A program made the position numbers and the translations under genes. From the IMG/VR virus record IMGVR_UViG_3300047463_000230, positions 1 through 63,361 of that record: DNA of 63,361 nt. The stretch is one strand, 5' to 3'. The notes under the pieces were generated by a model. The model had not been told where the DNA came from. It ran no database searches and saw nothing but the letters and a program-made list of their open reading frames with translations. This DNA is from a virus. Below are positions 3,831-43,094 of the stretch, one piece after another. Every line of letters starts with the position of its first letter. The stretch's first letter is position 1.

Positions 3831-4222
3831 CCGACCAGAATCCCAGCGTTGGACAGCGTGCCGGTCGAGCCGGAAGTATTTTGAATGGAGACTACGAATG
3901 ACAAAAATGGAGTGAAGTCGGACAACTTGACCGTCGTCGGAGTCGCCGCCGTCATCCCACTATTGTTTGTGTCAATCAGGATTGTGCCTGCCGCATCAAG
4001 GTAGCGACTGACAATGAGATCACCACTCTGGCTGAGTGTGGCGCAGGCAACGATCGAGTCTGCATTACCAGCCAAGATCACGCCACTTGACCACGTTGTA
4101 TTACCAGCGATGGTCGCTGGAAACGGAGTCGGGGGCGTAATGATATAGTTGCCGTTGGCCACGTAAACGGGGATTGCCGCAGCAGCATTCTGCTGCAAGT
4201 TCGGATAAGGATAGTTGCTCAT
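3827..4222 (-). CDS. small virion protein, unknown
   Basis: 131 residues from the ATG at 4222, which overlaps the preceding stop as ATGA. The chain alternates short beta-prone segments (VYVANGNYIITPPTPFPATI) with Gly/Ser turns and has no membrane segment or catalytic motif. Its place among short post-capsid genes suggests a head decoration or connector part. Confidence 0.5.
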   Translation of the reverse strand: MSNYPYPNLQQNAAAAIPVYVANGNYIITPPTPFPATIAGNTTWSSGVILAGNADSIVACATLSQSGDLIVSRYLDAAGTILIDTNNSGMTAATPTTVKLSDFTPFLSFVVSIQNTSGSTGTLSNAGILVG

Positions 4223-18895: not shown

Positions 18896-18929
18896 TCGCC
18901 CGGCGCCTCAAAGATAAGGCGCCGGGCGA
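18896..18929 (+). terminator. strong hairpin after the SSB-candidate gene
   Basis: A perfect 13-bp stem (TCGCCCGGCGCCT with AGGCGCCGGGCGA) and 8-base loop, 8 nt after the stop. There is no T run on either side, so it is more likely a 3' stabiliser or partial terminator that lowers expression of downstream genes. Confidence 0.6.
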
Positions 18930-29204: not shown

Positions 29205-29485
29205 TGTGTTCTGACATCATCGACAAAGTCGTCAAGCAGCAGGCCCGACTAAATCACGTAGCAATGATGGCTTGCCCAAAGTGCGGCTATGCTTACTCGA
29301 AGGCCATTGATACAAATCGCGCTAAAACAATGACAGAAGTCAGGCGCAATCGCAGCTGCTTGAAATGCTCATCGCAATTCATCACATATGAGATCATCGC
29401 ATCAGACTATGCCATGCTACAATCTTTTCGGCGCTGGACAAAAGAGGAAAGCCAGCGAATTGTTGACACTCAGGAGGTCAAATGA
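29204..29485 (+). CDS. NrdR-like zinc-ribbon protein without ATP-cone
   Basis: 93 residues from ATG 29204. Zinc ribbon ACPKCGYAYSKA then RRNRSCLKCSSQFITYEI, matching the N-terminal domain of NrdR, the repressor of ribonucleotide reductase genes. The ATP-cone that senses dATP is absent: only ~40 residues follow. It could occupy NrdR boxes of the host and derepress reductase genes, or serve as a replisome zinc module, since it lies between epsilon- and alpha-like genes. Confidence 0.65.
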   Translation: MCSDIIDKVVKQQARLNHVAMMACPKCGYAYSKAIDTNRAKTMTEVRRNRSCLKCSSQFITYEIIASDYAMLQSFRRWTKEESQRIVDTQEVK

Positions 29486-32313
29486 TCCGCTCTGGCTACA
29501 GCTTCCGCACCGCCTTCGGGCACTTGCCTGATGTTCTTAGCCGCGTCATCGAATGCGGCTATAAGGTCGCCCCGTTGGCAGATCGCTGCTCAACATTCGG
29601 CTTTGTGCGATGGACGAAGCTCTGCAAAAAATCCAACATTCGGCCAGTTTACGGGGTCGAGTTGGCAGTGACGGGCGCCTTTGGCACAAAGAAGCCAGTT
29701 GTTGATCATTGGACATTTTTGGCAGTCAACGGACTCAAGGGGATTCACAGTCTTGTTGCTCTGGCCACTGCAAATCCAGATCGCGATCCGAGCTTGAGTT
29801 ATGACCAAGCGCTGGCTGCTGAAGACGTCATAATCATAACAGGTGAAAAAGCACAACTTGATAATTTTCCCCCAGCGCCGAACCTCTATGTCGCCTTGTC
29901 GCCAGCCACGCCCAAAGGTTTCTATCGCGCCGCCAAGGCTGCCGGTCACAAGTTCATCGCTCGTAGCGATAATCTTTATCCGAGGCCAGAAGACAAGGAG
30001 ATATACCGCATTGCGCTTGGGCGGCGCTCAACGACCCAAACATACCCCCAGTACATTTTGACCAAAGATGAATGGTTCGAGGCATTGAAGTGGACTGCTG
30101 ATTCTGCTGATATTGCCGAGGCCTGGGAAAACAAGATTGCAGCCCTTGACAGCTGCAAGGCTGAGTTGCATCGCGCCGAACTTTTGAAGCCAGAGCGTCC
30201 TGACACCTTGCGCAACCTCTGTTTGGCAGGAGCCAAAAAGCTCAAGGTCAATCTCAAGAACAAAATCTATTCAGAACGGCTCAATAGGGAGTTGAAACTA
30301 ATTTCTGAGAAAAACTTTGAAGACTATTTTTACATCATTGCCGATATGATAGCTTGGGCAAAGCAGCACATGATTGTTGGTCCGGCGCGCGGGTCATCTT
30401 GCGGATCGCTTGTGTGCTATTTGCTCGGGATCACCACAATTGATCCGATACCATTCGGATTGATCTTTGAGCGCTTCATTGATATTAATCGAAAGGACTT
30501 GCCAGATATTGATATCGATTTTTCTGATGCTAGGCGCGACCTTGTGTTCAAATATGTCGAAAAGAAGTATGGGCGCGACCGCGTTGCGCGTCTCGGCACT
30601 GTTGGATTGTTCAAGCCGCGCTCGGCATTGAATCAAGCTGGCATCTCGCTCCAGATACCACGCTGGCTTGTTGAGCGGACGCTTGATGGCGTCATCGAGC
30701 GCTCCGGCGGCGATTCACGCGCCATGTTGGCGCTTGAGGACACACTTAATGGCACAGAGATGGGCCGCAAGCTGCTGGATGAATATCCGGAGGCAAGACT
30801 TGCTGGCAAGATGGAGGGGCATCCGAACAATGCATCTCAGCACGCGGCTGGTATTGTCCTGACAGAGCATCCCCTTTCTGAATATGTGGCAATTGACTCG
30901 CGCACTAATTCAGCAATGTGCGACAAGAAAGATGCTGAAGATCTCAACTTGCTGAAAATTGACGCGCTTGGGTTGACACAACTTTCGGTTTTTGAACGGA
31001 CACTTGAACTCATCGGCAAGCCTGCCCGCAGCGGGTTTCTTGAGACGCTTCCGCTTGATGATGTGAAAGCATTTGATGTTCTCAACTCAGGGCACTTCTC
31101 TGGCATATTCCAGTTTACTGGAACAGCACTAATGTCCCTGACACGACAGGTCAAGATAACAAACATCGATGACATCATCTCTATCACTGCTCTGGCTCGG
31201 CCAGGACCAATGGCAACGGGCGGCGCCAACTCCTGGGTCAAGCGTCGCAGCGGTCGCGAAAAGGTAACAACACAACACCCGATGCTGACTGAGCTCACAA
31301 AGGAGACTTATGGCATCGTTGTGTATCAGGAGACTGTAATGAACATTGCTCGCGGCATTGGGCAATTGTCCTGGGAGGATACATCCGAGTTGCGCAAGGC
31401 CATGTCTAAGAGCTTGGGTGATGAGTTCTTCAATGCTTATTGGATCAAGTTTCGTACTGGGGCGCTGGCCAATGGGCTGGAGGAAAAGACTGCTCGGGAA
31501 ATTTGGGATCAAGTCAATACCTTTGGCTCATGGGCCTTCAACAAGGCCCATGCGGTGGCTTATGGCATTGTCAGCTACTGGTGCTGTTGGCTCAAGGCCC
31601 ATCATCCGGTTGAGTTCGCTGCTGCAACACTTGATGCTGAGGCTGATCCGGCTAAACAGATCAAAATGCTACGTGAGCTTGAATCAGAAGGCGTGAAGTA
31701 CAAGCCTGTTGATCCAGATCATTCAACTGACAGATGGAGCTTCAAGACAGAAGGAGACGAGAGGATTCTTATTGGCCCAATAACATCGATCAAAGGCATT
31801 GGCCCTGCATCGATGAGGGAAATCCTCGATGCGCGGAAAAATGGCGAACCATTGCGCGCATCTTTAGCCAAGAAACTGGCTAATTGCAAAACTGAGATCG
31901 ATACACTCTATCCGATCCGTGATAGGATCAAGCAATTGCATCCTGATTTATCTGCTATAAAAATTGTCACGAAGCAGACCGATGTTATCGATGTCAGAGA
32001 TGGAGAGGAAAAAGAGGTCATGATCTTGGGAGTCGCGACTAAAATTGCGCCAGTTGATGAAAATGAAAATATTCGAGTCATGAGGCGCGGCAAGGAGGTT
32101 TCTGGCCCGTCTGCATCTCTCAATTTGTTCTTTGCTGATGACACAGATGAGGTATTTTGCAAAGTTAATCGCTTTAAATTTGAAAGCATCGGGCGAGCAA
32201 TTGTCGACCGTGGCCGGCCCGGAAAGTCCCTTTATGCAATCAAAGGTCGAACGGTCCGAACTTTCCGGATGATTGATGTCCAGCAAGTCCGCTATTTGGG
32301 AGACCTAGAATGA
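29482..32313 (+). CDS. DNA polymerase III alpha-like replicative polymerase (C family)
   Basis: 943 residues, shorter than bacterial DnaE (~1160). An N-terminal PHP-like region (~1-210) lacks the usual metal-binding His/Asp clusters and is probably inactive. Palm catalytic motif PDIDIDF (~341-347) and the later LKIDALGL (Asp ~494) supply the acidic triad. GPARGSSCGS (~295) and FNKAHAVAYG (~687) are conserved C-family features. A helix-hairpin-helix-like GPITSIKGIGPASM is near 770. The beta-binding/OB C-terminus is shortened. It makes this phage carry its own bacterial-type replicase. Confidence 0.88.
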   Translation: MIRSGYSFRTAFGHLPDVLSRVIECGYKVAPLADRCSTFGFVRWTKLCKKSNIRPVYGVELAVTGAFGTKKPVVDHWTFLAVNGLKGIHSLVALATANPDRDPSLSYDQALAAEDVIIITGEKAQLDNFPPAPNLYVALSPATPKGFYRAAKAAGHKFIARSDNLYPRPEDKEIYRIALGRRSTTQTYPQYILTKDEWFEALKWTADSADIAEAWENKIAALDSCKAELHRAELLKPERPDTLRNLCLAGAKKLKVNLKNKIYSERLNRELKLISEKNFEDYFYIIADMIAWAKQHMIVGPARGSSCGSLVCYLLGITTIDPIPFGLIFERFIDINRKDLPDIDIDFSDARRDLVFKYVEKKYGRDRVARLGTVGLFKPRSALNQAGISLQIPRWLVERTLDGVIERSGGDSRAMLALEDTLNGTEMGRKLLDEYPEARLAGKMEGHPNNASQHAAGIVLTEHPLSEYVAIDSRTNSAMCDKKDAEDLNLLKIDALGLTQLSVFERTLELIGKPARSGFLETLPLDDVKAFDVLNSGHFSGIFQFTGTALMSLTRQVKITNIDDIISITALARPGPMATGGANSWVKRRSGREKVTTQHPMLTELTKETYGIVVYQETVMNIARGIGQLSWEDTSELRKAMSKSLGDEFFNAYWIKFRTGALANGLEEKTAREIWDQVNTFGSWAFNKAHAVAYGIVSYWCCWLKAHHPVEFAAATLDAEADPAKQIKMLRELESEGVKYKPVDPDHSTDRWSFKTEGDERILIGPITSIKGIGPASMREILDARKNGEPLRASLAKKLANCKTEIDTLYPIRDRIKQLHPDLSAIKIVTKQTDVIDVRDGEEKEVMILGVATKIAPVDENENIRVMRRGKEVSGPSASLNLFFADDTDEVFCKVNRFKFESIGRAIVDRGRPGKSLYAIKGRTVRTFRMIDVQQVRYLGDLE

Positions 32314-35173: not shown

Positions 35174-36676
35174 ATGCAATGGTCACCGCAACAATCCGCC
35201 TTCCTTGATTGGGCCGTCACAAGCTCTGGCTCATGTGTCCTTGAGGCCGTCGCAGGCGCCGGCAAGACTACCACGCTCATTGAGGCTGCCAGCCGCATGC
35301 CCGGTCAGGTCGCCATCATGGCCTACAACCGCAAGATTGCTGACGAAATACGCGGCAAGCTGGCCGACCGTGAAATTGACTGGAAAAAAGCACAAGCCAA
35401 CACCGTGCACGGCTTTGGCATGGGGGCCTATCGCAAGGCCCGCCCCAATGTCCGCGTCTATGATCGCAAGGTGGCGGATATTGTTGAAGCTCTTATTCCT
35501 GAGTCCCATCCGCTGGTGGCTTATCGGGATTCAATTGTCAAGCTGGTATCGCTGGCCAAACAGCTGGCCTATGGCATTGTCTGCCCGGCAAACAATCCAT
35601 ACCAGTGGTTTGAGATGGCTGAGCACTTCGATGTGTTTGACGACGATGACGGGTATGTTCCGAAGAATGACATCATCGATATTGCAATCGAAGCGCTTGC
35701 AGCATCGTCGCGCAATCTGGATGTGATTGACTTCGACGACATGATCTATATGCCGTTGCTGCACCGCATCAGGTTTTGGCAGTACGACGTCATCATGGTT
35801 GATGAGGCCCAGGACACCAATGCTGCTCGCCGCGCCCTTGTCCGCGCCATGCTGCGCAAGGGCGGCAGGGTCATCGCCGTCGGCGACCGCCATCAGGCAA
35901 TTTATGGGTTCACCGGTGCCGATGCTGATTCGCTTGATCTAATCGCCAAGGATTTTAACTGCAAGCAGCTGCCTCTGACCGTCAGCTACCGTTGCCCGAA
36001 GGCAGTCATTGCCTTTGCCCAGCAGTGGGTGTCTCACATTCAAGCAGCGCCGAGCGCTCCTGAAGGTGGTGCTGACAGCATTGAGATGGAAGCATTCTTG
36101 AAGCGAGATGATCTTGATGGCCGCTCAGCAGTTCTGTCGCGCACCACAAAGCCGCTGGTGTCCTTGGCCTTCAAGATGCTGCGCCAGCGGACGCCATGCC
36201 GCATCGAGGGCCGCGACATTGGGCAGCGCTTGATCAAGACAATTCAGCGCTGGAAGGTAAAGACACTAGATGGCCTTGAGGATCGGCTTGATAGTCACCT
36301 TTCAAAGATGACGACCAAGTTGCTAGCTAAAAAGCAAGAAGGGAAACTTGCAGAAGTTGAGGACATGGTGGAAACGCTGAAGGTCATCATCGACCAGTGC
36401 CGACTGGAAAAGAAGGACAAGGTGTCAGATGCAGTCGAGTACGTCGAGGCCATGTTTGCAGACGGTGTCGACCGCATTTTGACCCTGTCGACCATCCACA
36501 AGTCCAAGGGACGTGAGTGGCCTAATGTGTTTTGGTTGGACCGTATTGGCACCTGCCCAAGCAAATGGGCGCGGCAGCAGTGGCAGCAGGAGCAAGAAAA
36601 AAATCTTTGCTATGTTGCTGCGACGCGCGCTCAAGAATGCCTTTTTGACCTCCTTCCGGAAAGGAAACCCCAATGA
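35174..36676 (+). CDS. UvrD/Rep-type SF1 helicase
   Basis: 500 residues with AAGGAG. Motif I AVAGAGKTTTL (~25-35), motif Ia MAYNRK (~49), motif II MVDEAQDTN (~208-216), motif III GDRHQAIYGF (~236-245), motif V STIHKSKGREW (~439-449) and motif VI YVAATRA (~480). Shorter than bacterial UvrD, as usual for phage Dda-like helicases that support replication and recombination. Codon use shifts from GC-rich at the 5' end to the A/T-rich style later, hinting at a mosaic gene. Confidence 0.83.
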   Translation: MQWSPQQSAFLDWAVTSSGSCVLEAVAGAGKTTTLIEAASRMPGQVAIMAYNRKIADEIRGKLADREIDWKKAQANTVHGFGMGAYRKARPNVRVYDRKVADIVEALIPESHPLVAYRDSIVKLVSLAKQLAYGIVCPANNPYQWFEMAEHFDVFDDDDGYVPKNDIIDIAIEALAASSRNLDVIDFDDMIYMPLLHRIRFWQYDVIMVDEAQDTNAARRALVRAMLRKGGRVIAVGDRHQAIYGFTGADADSLDLIAKDFNCKQLPLTVSYRCPKAVIAFAQQWVSHIQAAPSAPEGGADSIEMEAFLKRDDLDGRSAVLSRTTKPLVSLAFKMLRQRTPCRIEGRDIGQRLIKTIQRWKVKTLDGLEDRLDSHLSKMTTKLLAKKQEGKLAEVEDMVETLKVIIDQCRLEKKDKVSDAVEYVEAMFADGVDRILTLSTIHKSKGREWPNVFWLDRIGTCPSKWARQQWQQEQEKNLCYVAATRAQECLFDLLPERKPQ

Positions 36677-36780
36677 TCTGGGAAATCATATCAATGATCC
36701 GCGATGCAGCCGCCATTGCTCTTTTCATCGCTTGCCTTTTTCTCTATGAGATTTTGGCGAGTGGGCACCTTCCACTATAA
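36673..36780 (+). CDS. 35-residue single-span membrane peptide
   Basis: Begins with an ATG overlapping the helicase stop (ATGA) and ends 7 nt before the first hairpin RNA. MIWEIISMIRDAAAIALFIA then CLFLYEILASGHLPL gives one clear transmembrane helix. Too short for a family call; the overlap supports translation. Confidence 0.45.
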   Translation: MIWEIISMIRDAAAIALFIACLFLYEILASGHLPL

Positions 36781-36786
36781 TTGACA

Positions 36787-36857
36787 AGGCCGAAACCGGA
36801 ACGCAAGGCGTTCCGGTCCATCCGTTAAGCGGATGCCGATGAGGCCAAAGGCTCATC
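36787..36857 (+). ncRNA. three-hairpin leader RNA, copy 1
   Basis: A 71-nt element upstream of the DUF932 gene. Hairpin 1: CCGGAACGC/GCGTTCCGG, loop AAG. Hairpin 2: CATCCG/CGGATG, loop TTAAG. Hairpin 3: GATGA-G-GCC/GGC-TCATC with a bulged G, loop AAA. The ribosome site AAAGGA lies ~15 nt downstream. The same element recurs at 37750-37820 with 66 of 71 bases identical. Probably a cis-regulatory leader or protein-binding operator. Confidence 0.75.
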
Positions 36858-36884
36858 TATTCTAACTGCTGAAAGGAACAAACA

Positions 36885-37745
36885 ATGCAGCCAATCTACA
36901 CCAACACTGCTCGTTTCGATACTGGCCGCGCACTGACTGATGATGAGCTTTTCAAGCTTGCTCCATCAGTTTTTGCAACACAGGCACATGAAAGCCGCAG
37001 CGAGCGCTTCCGGCCGATCCCGACGATTGATGTGCTGCGCAGCTTGGAAAAAGAGGGTTTTGGCGTCGTCGGCGCCCGGCAATGCACAGTCCGTGATCCT
37101 GGCAAGGCACCGTTCACAAAGCACCTTCTCCGCATTCGGCGCATGAGCGATGAACGCAAGTACGCAGTTGGTGATACTGTTTTCGAGATGCTGATGCGAA
37201 ATGCCAATGATGGCTCCGGCGCATATGATCTGCTCGGCTCGCTGTATCGTATCCGCTGTATGAACTCAATGACTGCAAAGCTTGCCGATGTTGAAAGTGT
37301 CCGAGTTCGACACAGTGGTGATGTCCAAAGCAAAGTCATTGATGGGACATTTCGAGTGCTCGAAAGTGCAGAGCTCGCCTTGACGGCGCCAGAAAAATGG
37401 TCACAGATCAAGCTCGAAAAAGAAGAAGCATTGGCGCTGGCAACTTCAGCTCATCAAGTTCGCTTTGGCGAAAAGTCTGCAGGCCAACCCATCAGCCCTC
37501 AACGCTTGCTTCAAGCGCGGCGCAGTGGTGATTGCAGCAATGATCTTTGGACGACATTCAATGTCATTCAAGAAAATTGCATCCGTGGCGGTCAACGCAG
37601 CATTGTTGTTACTGAGGATGGCCGATACCGAAATGTTAGCACTCGGGCAATTCGAGGCATCGATCAAGACCTGAAGATAAATCGGGCATTGTGGATGCTC
37701 ACCGATCGGATGGCTGAAATCAAAGGAACTCGGTTGGTAGCCTAA
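36885..37745 (+). CDS. DUF932 family protein
   Basis: 286 residues. The region ~35-260 (FRPIPTIDVLRSLEKEGFGV, YRIRCMNSMTAK, LWTTFNVIQENCIRGGQR) matches DUF932, found in phages and plasmids with unknown function but often near replication or anti-defence genes. It is preceded by the three-hairpin RNA and an AAAGGA site. A/T-rich codon style. Confidence 0.8.
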   Translation: MQPIYTNTARFDTGRALTDDELFKLAPSVFATQAHESRSERFRPIPTIDVLRSLEKEGFGVVGARQCTVRDPGKAPFTKHLLRIRRMSDERKYAVGDTVFEMLMRNANDGSGAYDLLGSLYRIRCMNSMTAKLADVESVRVRHSGDVQSKVIDGTFRVLESAELALTAPEKWSQIKLEKEEALALATSAHQVRFGEKSAGQPISPQRLLQARRSGDCSNDLWTTFNVIQENCIRGGQRSIVVTEDGRYRNVSTRAIRGIDQDLKINRALWMLTDRMAEIKGTRLVA

Positions 37746-37749
37746 TTCA

Positions 37750-37820
37750 AGACCGAAACCGGAACGCAAGGCGCTCCGGTCCATCCGTGAAGCGGATGCC
37801 GATGAGGTCAAAGGCTCGTC
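37750..37820 (+). ncRNA. three-hairpin leader RNA, copy 2
   Basis: Second copy of the element at 36787-36857, starting 5 nt after the DUF932 stop and ending ~13 nt before a GGAG site. Compared with copy 1 there are five changes: one in loop 2, one 5' of the stems, two in hairpin 3 that keep pairing as G-U, and one in hairpin 1 that makes an A-C mismatch. This pattern suggests selection for RNA structure. Confidence 0.75.
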
Positions 37821-37843
37821 TGGAACCAACTTAGGAGACTAAA

Positions 37844-38302
37844 ATGAAGATCGAAAACATCACGACTGCTTCGACCAAGGAGCTGATTTCGTTCTACAAT
37901 GCTAACTCTGGCCGACCACTGGTCAAGAAGTTTGCCGACCGTAAGACTGCTGAGGCCCGTGTGAAGAATGTCATTGAGTCGATTGCCAAGAGCGAGCCGG
38001 CTAAAGTTGAAAAGACTGAGAGTGTCAAGCAGACCAAGGCCCCCAAAGCTGAGCGCGGCATTGTTGGCGCTGGTACCAATCGAGAGGTTCTTTTCAACTG
38101 CCTCACAGCGCGCATCAACAAGATGGTTCCCATGAGCCAGCTCATGATTGCCGTCTATGGCGATGCCAACAAAAGCAACAAGAGCAAGCTCATGATGGTT
38201 ATGAAGGGCATCAATTTTGTGATTGCATCCAAGGGCCTCCCCTTCACCATCAAAAAGGTTCGCGAAAATAAGGAGAATCACTTTGGACTCTTTGATGCCT
38301 AA
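37844..38302 (+). CDS. unknown protein with helical N-terminal and C-terminal domains
   Basis: 152 residues, GGAG upstream. N-terminal motif TASTKELISFYNANSGRPLV then KKFADRKTAEARV recurs in phage and plasmid proteins of unknown function. A Lys-rich linker (~55-75) leads to a C-terminal helical domain (REVLFNCLTARINKMVPMSQ) that could be winged-helix. Follows copy 2 of the hairpin RNA. Confidence 0.6.
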   Translation: MKIENITTASTKELISFYNANSGRPLVKKFADRKTAEARVKNVIESIAKSEPAKVEKTESVKQTKAPKAERGIVGAGTNREVLFNCLTARINKMVPMSQLMIAVYGDANKSNKSKLMMVMKGINFVIASKGLPFTIKKVRENKENHFGLFDA

Positions 38303-38792: not shown

Positions 38793-39087
38793 AAGCTACC
38801 TAGGGAACTGTCAACTTTTATCCATTGCGTGCGCGGCTGCCTTTTTCGCCCTGGCGTTCGGCATGCTTCTCGAGCGTAGCGGCGCCCTTGCCAAAGCGCG
38901 TGGACGGGCACGGGCAGACGCCATCAATGAGGCAGTGGCCATGATCCAGAAACACGCGTCGACCATGGAGACCGGGACAATCGCGGAGGGGTCGGACCTC
39001 AACGGTTACATGAAACTTAAAGCGTCCCACTACAGGCAAGCGGCGCAACGTGTGACGGCGCTGCATCAGGAGGCTACCAATGGATGA
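38779..39087 (+). CDS. small membrane protein with helical tail
   Basis: 102 residues from ATG 38779, overlapping the previous gene. One membrane span (LLSIACAAAFFALAFGMLLE) is followed by a charged helical region (RARADAINEAVAMIQKHAST). Inner-membrane anchored, function unknown. Confidence 0.55.
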   Translation: MTAYESYLGNCQLLSIACAAAFFALAFGMLLERSGALAKARGRARADAINEAVAMIQKHASTMETGTIAEGSDLNGYMKLKASHYRQAAQRVTALHQEATNG

Positions 39088-39619
39088 GGAAACAGAACGG
39101 GGATACAGGGGCAGTTGTTGGACCCCCACCAATGTCAAGATATTACGGGACATGTGGGCCAAGAAATGCTACGTCCGCGACATATGCGCGGCCATTGGTC
39201 CGGGCGCCAGCCGCAACGCCGTCATCGGCAAGGCACATCGTCTCGGCCTTGGCACCAAGCGCGACGAGTGGAAGCGACTGCGGGCCGAGGCCCGAGATGC
39301 CCGCCTTAAGGCCAAGGCGCAGGCCCGCGCGTTGGCGCTGGCACAGGCCAGCGACCCCACACTTAAGGCGCTGACGCGGGACAAGCGCGCCAGCATACTC
39401 GACGACTTGGCCATACAGGGCGAGGTCCGGGCAACACTGGAACAAATGACTAAGCGCAGCCGGCTGCGGTTCATGCTCAAGTCGCATCCTAAGTGCACAT
39501 GGTTTGGCTGTGACAGCCCGCCGTATGAACGCGGCAAGCCATATTGCCGCGACCACCGTCATGCCGTTATGGTCCAACCAACAGGGGTCATTTATGCAGG
39601 GTCCGGGCTTAGTCGATAA
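39080..39619 (+). CDS. GcrA-family transcriptional regulator
   Basis: 179 residues with AGGAGG upstream. Residues 14-57 form the GcrA DNA-binding domain: WTPTNVKILRDMW, CAAIGPGASRNAVIGKAHRL. The C-terminus carries CTWFGC (139-144) and YCRDH (~155-159), the zinc-like Cys/His region that in GcrA contacts sigma70 RNA polymerase. Host GcrA activates promoters at methylated GANTC sites in Alphaproteobacteria. The middle (~60-125) is a longer Ala/Arg helical linker than usual. Likely redirects host or phage transcription. Confidence 0.78.
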   Translation: MDEETERGYRGSCWTPTNVKILRDMWAKKCYVRDICAAIGPGASRNAVIGKAHRLGLGTKRDEWKRLRAEARDARLKAKAQARALALAQASDPTLKALTRDKRASILDDLAIQGEVRATLEQMTKRSRLRFMLKSHPKCTWFGCDSPPYERGKPYCRDHRHAVMVQPTGVIYAGSGLSR

Positions 39620-43065: not shown

Positions 43066-43094
43066 GACGCCGGCCCGTGGCTAGGGCCGGCGTC
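43066..43094 (-). terminator. intrinsic terminator of the leftward late operon
   Basis: Perfect 11-bp G/C stem (GACGCCGGCCC with GGGCCGGCGTC), 7-base loop, followed on the minus strand by TTTTT. It would end leftward late/lysis transcription; for rightward transcripts there is no T run, although the hairpin may still slow them. Confidence 0.8.

What the first reader, a model, noticed from the sequence alone, without database searches (positions are those of the whole stretch)
36787..37820. Duplicated 71-nt three-hairpin leader RNA before two adjacent genes
The same element (66 of 71 bases identical) lies directly upstream of the DUF932 gene and of the next gene. Each copy folds as three successive hairpins with short loops (AAG, TTAAG/TGAAG, AAA). 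Two of the three stem differences keep pairing as G-U. Two copies kept at the same distance before ribosome sites suggest a phage cis-regulatory RNA or an operator for an RNA-binding protein that co-controls both genes. I cannot match it to a known Rfam family.
Basis: partly seen in the sequence, partly recalled or inferred. Interest (0 to 1): 0.8.

Follow-up and report, generated by a model that had tools for sequence, protein, structure and literature searches.

The report
Paired variant hammerhead ribozymes in phage
The repeated "three-hairpin leader" is a pair of predicted self-cutting RNA elements (type II hammerhead ribozymes with one unusual core base) that flank a phage gene and probably cut its message out of a longer transcript; public RNA models miss this variant, which recurs in about 20 unrelated viral neighbourhoods.

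Summary
The duplication is real: 36785-36858 and 37748-37821 match at 69 of 74 bases. The three-hairpin reading is incomplete. Each copy has the type II hammerhead fold: stem II strand, GAA, hairpin (stem III), C^ cleavage site, hairpin (stem I), CCGAUGA, stem II strand. A covariance model built from 37 other phage hammerheads, with no window sequence, finds exactly these two places (E 7e-15 and 2e-13). Two of the five A/B differences are a compensatory G-C to A-U change in stem II. The core has C4 where hammerheads have U4, and Rfam misses it. Counting the window, 26 distinct C4 copies occur in about 20 unrelated neighbourhoods; one orthologous C4 pair changed five of six stem I pairs on both sides and kept the core. 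Predicted cuts after 36818 and 37781 would release a 963-nt DUF932 mRNA. In related ribozymes with such a tail, the tail base facing core position 7 covaries with it (p = 7e-5 after clustering). Self-cleavage was not tested. Hammerheads flanking prophage genes were reported in 2011; the recurrent C4 core and the covarying anti-core hairpin appear new.

The parts
36787..36847 (+). Copy A: type II hammerhead ribozyme, U4C variant. Conserved A 36787; stem II 3' strand GGCC 36788-36791; GAA (G12 A13 A14) 36792-36794; stem III 36795-36817; C17 36818; stem I 36819-36835; core CCGATGA 36836-36842; stem II 5' strand GGCC 36843-36846
   Evidence: Model R2 hit, 57.9 bits, E 6.7e-15, from a model holding no window and no C4 sequence; anatomy by pattern; MFE of 36787-36847 is exactly this fold
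37750..37810 (+). Copy B: type II hammerhead ribozyme, U4C variant. Stem II 3' strand GACC 37751-37754; GAA 37755-37757; stem III 37758-37780 (one A.C mismatch); C17 37781; stem I 37782-37798; core CCGATGA 37799-37805; stem II 5' strand GGTC 37806-37809
   Evidence: Model R2 hit, 52.9 bits, E 2.1e-13; G-C to A-U compensatory change in stem II against copy A; MFE is this fold
36818..36819 (+). Predicted self-cleavage site of copy A (after C17)
   Evidence: Position defined by the hammerhead fold; cleavage not tested
37781..37782 (+). Predicted self-cleavage site of copy B (after C17)
   Evidence: Position defined by the hammerhead fold; cleavage not tested
36838..36857 (+).
   Evidence: MFE switches from hammerhead to this fold once the nascent RNA reaches 71 nt; similar core-tail hairpins enriched and covarying in related ribozymes
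37801..37820 (+). Copy B alternative hairpin (GATGAG..CTCGTC), kept with G-U pairs
36754..36781 (+). sigma70-like promoter match TTGGCG-16-TATAAT, best in 34-44 kb, ending 5 nt before copy A; it overlaps the end of a small ORF, so it may be chance
36673..36780 (+). Small ORF (35 aa) whose start overlaps the UvrD-like stop codon and whose stop lies 6 nt before copy A
   Evidence: Read from sequence
36885..37745 (+). DUF932 gene (286 aa) flanked by the two ribozymes; AAGGA ribosome site at 36873-36877
   Evidence: PF06067 E 1.1e-33, phrog_12094
37844..38302 (+). 152-aa protein downstream of copy B; AGGAG ribosome site at 37833-37837
   Evidence: N-terminal match to phrog_4730

Best explanation
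Two type II hammerhead ribozymes with a natural U4C core sit right after stop codons in one operon and flank the DUF932 gene. During transcription each folds with stem II formed and cuts its own strand after C17 (36818 and 37781). This would release a 963-nt DUF932 mRNA with a 5'-OH directly on the stem I hairpin and a 3' end closed by the stem III hairpin with a 2',3'-cyclic phosphate, and would give the next gene its own start. Both ends are then structured, which should slow 5'-end-dependent and 3'-exonucleolytic decay and uncouple the genes. That ends the chance to cut, or locks the product and blocks religation. Shown here: the hammerhead fold, its conservation, its gene-boundary position and the alternative hairpin. 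Inferred: cleavage, its rate with C4, and the effect on mRNA. The confidence given is for a hammerhead-derived element that cuts to some degree; the fold itself I hold at about 0.97.
For: Independent model R2 finds only these two places in 63 kb, E 6.7e-15 and 2.1e-13. R2's training alignment shows 98% paired cells and 14 of 18 pairs with double changes; covariation score 0.740 against 0.157 shuffled. The motif search gives 0 hits in 0.48 Mb of shuffled DNA. Compensatory stem II change between the copies (chance about 0.04 for five random substitutions). Hammerheads with the standard core occur in related DUF932 phages: L017, directly before DUF932; L022, directly after it and 300 nt on; L020, L031, L042; Rfam RF02276 passes its cut-off in L022. 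Position: 237 of 265 have a ribosome site and start codon 8-90 nt downstream (antisense control 75) and 254 of 265 an upstream stop, median offset -4 (antisense control 136). C4 recurs: 26 unique copies, window included, in about 20 unrelated neighbourhoods. Orthologous C4 pair L256/L280: five of six stem I pairs doubly changed, core kept. One C4 copy (L277) shares its neighbourhood with three twister ribozymes. Related tandem hammerheads cut in vitro, and one set in E. coli (PMC3088659).
Against: No cleavage data for this sequence. U4C considerably lowers activity in vitro (PMC3088659), so cutting may be slow or partial. Copy B has an A.C mismatch in stem III. The full-length MFE is the three-hairpin fold. 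A pseudoknot of four or more pairs between loop I and the tail, usual in type II ribozymes, is not evident. Only 5 of 80 related DUF932 loci carry a hammerhead, so there is no fixed link with DUF932.
Confidence: 0.8

Rival explanations
1. Inactive hammerhead relics: a ribozyme lost activity by U4C, was duplicated with its flank, and now serves only as stable mRNA hairpins.
For: U4C lowers activity in vitro; the three-hairpin fold is the full-length MFE; copy B has a stem III mismatch.
Against: All other core bases are intact in both copies; compensatory stem II change; C4 copies recur in about 20 neighbourhoods with paired stems; orthologous C4 pair with five double changes in stem I; a U4C viroid ribozyme works in vivo (cited in PMC3088659).
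Confidence: 0.15
2. Switchable hammerhead: the tail hairpin that takes up the core is a regulated or kinetic off switch, so cutting depends on transcription speed, a ligand, a protein or ribosomes arriving at the downstream site. (A sub-case of the best explanation, not exclusive with it.)
For: MFE flips between 70 and 71 nt; core-tail hairpins of 6 or more bp in 56 of 292 copies against 10.3 expected; core position 7 covaries with the tail base, p 3.5e-10 raw and 6.8e-5 by cluster.
Against: Most copies lack the hairpin; the same data fit a lock that forms only after cleavage; no ligand or protein known.
Confidence: 0.3
3. Operator or leader bound by a phage RNA-binding protein that co-controls both genes.
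For: Two copies at like distance before two genes.
Against: The hammerhead core and stem II pairing explain the conserved bases; related copies occur before unrelated genes.
Confidence: 0.03
4. The two ribozymes circularise the 963-nt DUF932 RNA by cutting and religation.
For: Two same-strand copies give a unit with matching ends; hammerheads can ligate (general knowledge).
Against: Perreault et al. looked for spliced or circular products from tandem bacterial hammerheads and found none; the tail hairpin should disfavour religation.
Confidence: 0.05

Closest known systems
Hammerhead ribozyme type II (Rfam RF02276; Perreault et al. 2011, PMC3088659)
   Same: Same topology (stem II open), same order of strands, same core apart from position 4, C17 cleavage site, position between phage genes.
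   Different: C4 instead of U4 in both copies; 4-bp stem II where the Rfam model has 2 bp; below Rfam detection; tail hairpin competing with the core.
Tandem hammerheads flanking ardA in Agrobacterium tumefaciens and like prophage arrays (PMC3088659)
   Same: Several ribozymes flank single genes in one operon; proposed to cut long phage transcripts into gene-length mRNAs.
   Different: Different flanked gene (DUF932); those were tested, this one not; that paper accepted only standard cores unless activity was measured.
U4C viroid hammerhead (Ambros and Flores 1998, as cited by PMC3088659)
   Same: Same core change, reduced in vitro activity, function kept in vivo.
   Different: Viroid RNA, not a phage mRNA. 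I could not read the original paper.
Twister-P5 ribozyme (RF02684)
   Same: Self-cleaving ribozyme found near a C4 hammerhead on one viral contig, three copies in L277.
   Different: Unrelated fold and core.

Membership tests
Hammerhead ribozyme type II (RF02276) | Three stems around the core, stems I and III closed, stem II open | tested here: met
Hammerhead ribozyme type II (RF02276) | Core C3, G5, A6, G8, A9, G12, A13, A14, A15.1-U16.1, H17 | tested here: met
   Both copies match at all of these positions
Hammerhead ribozyme type II (RF02276) | Core U4 | tested here: not met
   C4 in both copies. U4C is a known active natural variant in a viroid (PMC3088659), so this is filed as a variant and not as a plain member
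Hammerhead ribozyme type II (RF02276) | Rfam gathering score | tested here: not met
   No RF02276 match in the window at the cut-off, nor in 36700-37900 up to E 10
Hammerhead ribozyme type II (RF02276) | Covariation supporting the fold | tested here: met
   Family alignment; copy A/B stem II change; C4 set; L256/L280
Hammerhead ribozyme type II (RF02276) | Loop I to 3' tail tertiary contact or pseudoknot | tested here: inconclusive
   Loop UNANG fits the commonest loop of related copies; no clear pseudoknot of four or more pairs seen by eye
Hammerhead ribozyme type II (RF02276) | Self-cleavage after H17 | not testable with these tools
   Needs an in vitro or in vivo assay
Protein-binding operator RNA | Known binding element, or a linked regulator conserved with the element | tested here: not met
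   Related elements occur before unrelated genes; no Rfam operator or leader match

The most novel reading that the evidence does not exclude
Phages carry a distinct, selected C4 sub-family of type II hammerheads, and many phage hammerheads carry a co-evolved 3' hairpin that takes up the catalytic core. Together they act as a slow or timed cutter that decides during transcription whether neighbouring genes share one mRNA.
Probability: 0.3. Interest if true: 0.78.

Novelty: new variant of a known kind. Interest (0 to 1): 0.62.

Why it matters
It turns an unassigned phage leader into a predicted catalytic RNA with base-exact cleavage sites. It shows that a core position usually treated as invariant is repeatedly C in phage ribozymes, so current models and filters (which discard core changes) miss them. 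It also gives a testable reason for the third hairpin: a tail that, in related ribozymes, covaries with the one free base of the core.

Tried and rejected
No DNA relatives of the window region in 50,697 phage records, and no close DUF932 relative by exact peptides. An exact 37-nt core pattern found nothing. Best weak Rfam match was osmY at 18.4 bits, rejected. Hairpin strings before DUF932 in other phages suggested a DUF932 leader family; they differ in sequence and only five of 80 loci have a hammerhead, so a DUF932-specific RNA was rejected. N4-type hairpin promoters: considered because of the triloops, but no giant vRNAP-size ORF is present. tRNA-like element: none found. C4 pattern hits in bacterial genomes gave no strict match, so they look like chance.

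Full report
OBSERVATION. Both fold better than shuffles (z -4.5 and -2.6). There is no third copy in this 63,361-base virus record. Rfam has no match in the window and only chance-level matches in the region.

HOW IT WAS RESOLVED. The DUF932 protein has 285 relatives among the pattern-matched stretches of viral contigs, of which the best 80 were fetched. Their alignment kept CGAAAC, GUC and CUGAUGA. Those are the three single-stranded parts of a hammerhead ribozyme in the order of the type II permutation: stem II strand, GAA, stem III hairpin, C cleavage site, stem I hairpin, CUGANGA, stem II strand. Rfam RF02276 (Hammerhead_II) passes its cut-off for both L022 copies.

ANATOMY IN THE WINDOW. 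Copy A: GGCC 36788-36791, GAA 36792-36794, stem III 36795-36817, C17 36818, stem I 36819-36835, CCGATGA 36836-36842, GGCC 36843-36846. Copy B: GACC 37751-37754, GAA 37755-37757, stem III 37758-37780, C17 37781, stem I 37782-37798, CCGATGA 37799-37805, GGTC 37806-37809. Of the five A/B differences, 36789 G>A and 36845 C>T form one compensatory stem II change (G-C to A-U), one lies in a variable loop base, one makes an A.C mismatch in stem III and one lies in the tail. Five random substitutions give some compensatory pair with chance about 0.04, so this alone is modest support.

INDEPENDENT TEST. Model R2 was built from 37 hammerheads with the standard U4 core and 18-nt stem III from other contigs, with no window sequence and no C4 sequence. 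Its structure has 98% paired cells, 14 of 18 pairs with changes on both sides, and covariation 0.740 against 0.157 shuffled and at most 0.13 for slid structures. The training copies were picked by paired stems, which raises the share of paired cells but does not dictate which pairs change. R2 finds both window copies and nothing else of note: 57.9 bits (E 6.7e-15) and 52.9 bits (E 2.1e-13). In the DUF932 loci it finds L017, L020, L022 twice, L031 three times and L042. The two L022 copies are in its training set; the others are not.

THE CORE VARIANT. Both copies have C at position 4. A viral scan for the C4 core with C-C/G-G next to the core in stem II gave 50 stretches, and with T-C/G-A 18. 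With strict geometry (17-nt stem I of at least 6 bp, 4-bp stem II, stem III) there are 26 unique C4 copies in 24 loci, window included, with 24 different stem I and 26 different stem III sequences. They fall in about 20 groups that do not share two or more ORFs. A looser form of the motif gave 0 hits in 0.48 Mb of shuffled DNA, and none of the bacterial-genome stretches picked by the C4 pattern alone had the strict geometry, so the pattern by itself does not produce paired stems. L256 and L280 carry C4 ribozymes directly after the stop codon of the same gene (81% identical DNA over 231 bases running into the ribozyme); five of six stem I pairs differ on both sides and still pair, while core and stem II are unchanged. 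That points to selection on the fold with C4 in place. No C4 copy in the 19 loci scanned reaches the Rfam cut-off. According to PMC3088659, a U4C viroid ribozyme has considerably lower activity in vitro yet supports infectivity; Olsthoorn 2014 (PMC4075628) found no inactivating change at U4 in a selection screen. PMC3088659 discarded hits with core changes unless tested, which explains why such copies could be missed. How common C4 is against other core changes was not measured.

CONTEXT. Among 265 strict copies with enough flank, 237 have a ribosome site and start codon 8-90 nt downstream on the same strand (antisense control 75) and 254 an upstream gene ending at the ribozyme, median offset -4 (antisense control 136). 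Copies on one strand of a locus are spaced 505 nt apart at the median. The window fits: UvrD-like helicase, a 35-aa ORF ending at 36780, copy A, DUF932, copy B, 152-aa gene. A good sigma70 match ends 5 nt before copy A, but it overlaps the small ORF and is unproven. Only 5 of 80 DUF932 loci have a hammerhead, so the element looks like a general gene-boundary cutter and not a DUF932 regulator.

THE THIRD HAIRPIN. It cannot coexist with stem II, and it uses core bases G5-A9. Folding growing transcripts gives the hammerhead as the best fold from 60 to 70 nt and the three-hairpin form from 71 nt on, for both copies. In the wider set, hairpins of 6 or more bp between core and tail occur in 56 of 292 copies against 10.3 expected after tail shuffling. 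In tails holding the complement of C3-A6, the base facing the one variable core position follows it: U7 with A 28 of 34, C7 with G 20 of 22, p 3.5e-10. With one vote per group of related loci p is 6.8e-5, and two groups contain both states with the matching partner. The anti-core hairpin is therefore selected in a subset, most often directly after stem II. The window's own hairpin is of the same kind but starts at G5, not C3, and was not part of that count. Whether such a hairpin switches the ribozyme off or locks the product is open.

MECHANISM. Cuts after 36818 and 37781 would free a 963-nt DUF932 mRNA with a 5'-OH on the stem I hairpin and a 3' cyclic phosphate behind the stem III hairpin, and would give the 152-aa gene its own start. 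PMC3088659 proposed that hammerheads flanking prophage genes cut long transcripts into gene-length mRNAs, saw cutting of tandem sets in vitro and of the A. tumefaciens set in E. coli, and saw no circular or spliced products. The protective role of the ends is inference.

NOVELTY. Type II hammerheads that punctuate phage operons are known. New to my knowledge, within the held library, are the recurrent C4 core in phages, its invisibility to Rfam, and the covarying anti-core hairpin.

Noticed in passing
L239 (viral contig, 8.5 kb): At least nine U4 and two C4 type II hammerheads in about 5 kb of one contig, a dense array.
   Followed up: partly
L277 4450-4518, 4770-4827, 5290-5348: Three Twister-P5 ribozymes beside a C4 hammerhead (4122) on one viral contig: two ribozyme classes side by side.
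   Followed up: no
L003 2880-3010; L025, L029, L030 upstream of position 4001: Strings of long G+C-rich hairpins before DUF932 genes that are not hammerheads.
   Followed up: partly
L004, L006, L007, L009 intergenic gaps: Jumbo phages carry stem-loops that contain the TTGACA of promoter-like sites (e.g. GGGGTTGACA..AGCCCC) before genes next to DUF932.
   Followed up: no
window 39080-39619: Homologue of GcrA, a cell-cycle regulator of alphaproteobacteria (PF07750, E 4e-14); suggests an alphaproteobacterial host.
   Followed up: no
window 29482-32313: DnaE-type DNA polymerase III alpha (E 1e-66); closest phage relatives about 39% identical. With tail sheath and baseplate genes the phage looks like a myovirus.
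   Followed up: no
window 43066-43094 and 18896-18929: Strong hairpins; the first is followed by T on the minus strand and scored as a likely terminator.
   Followed up: no
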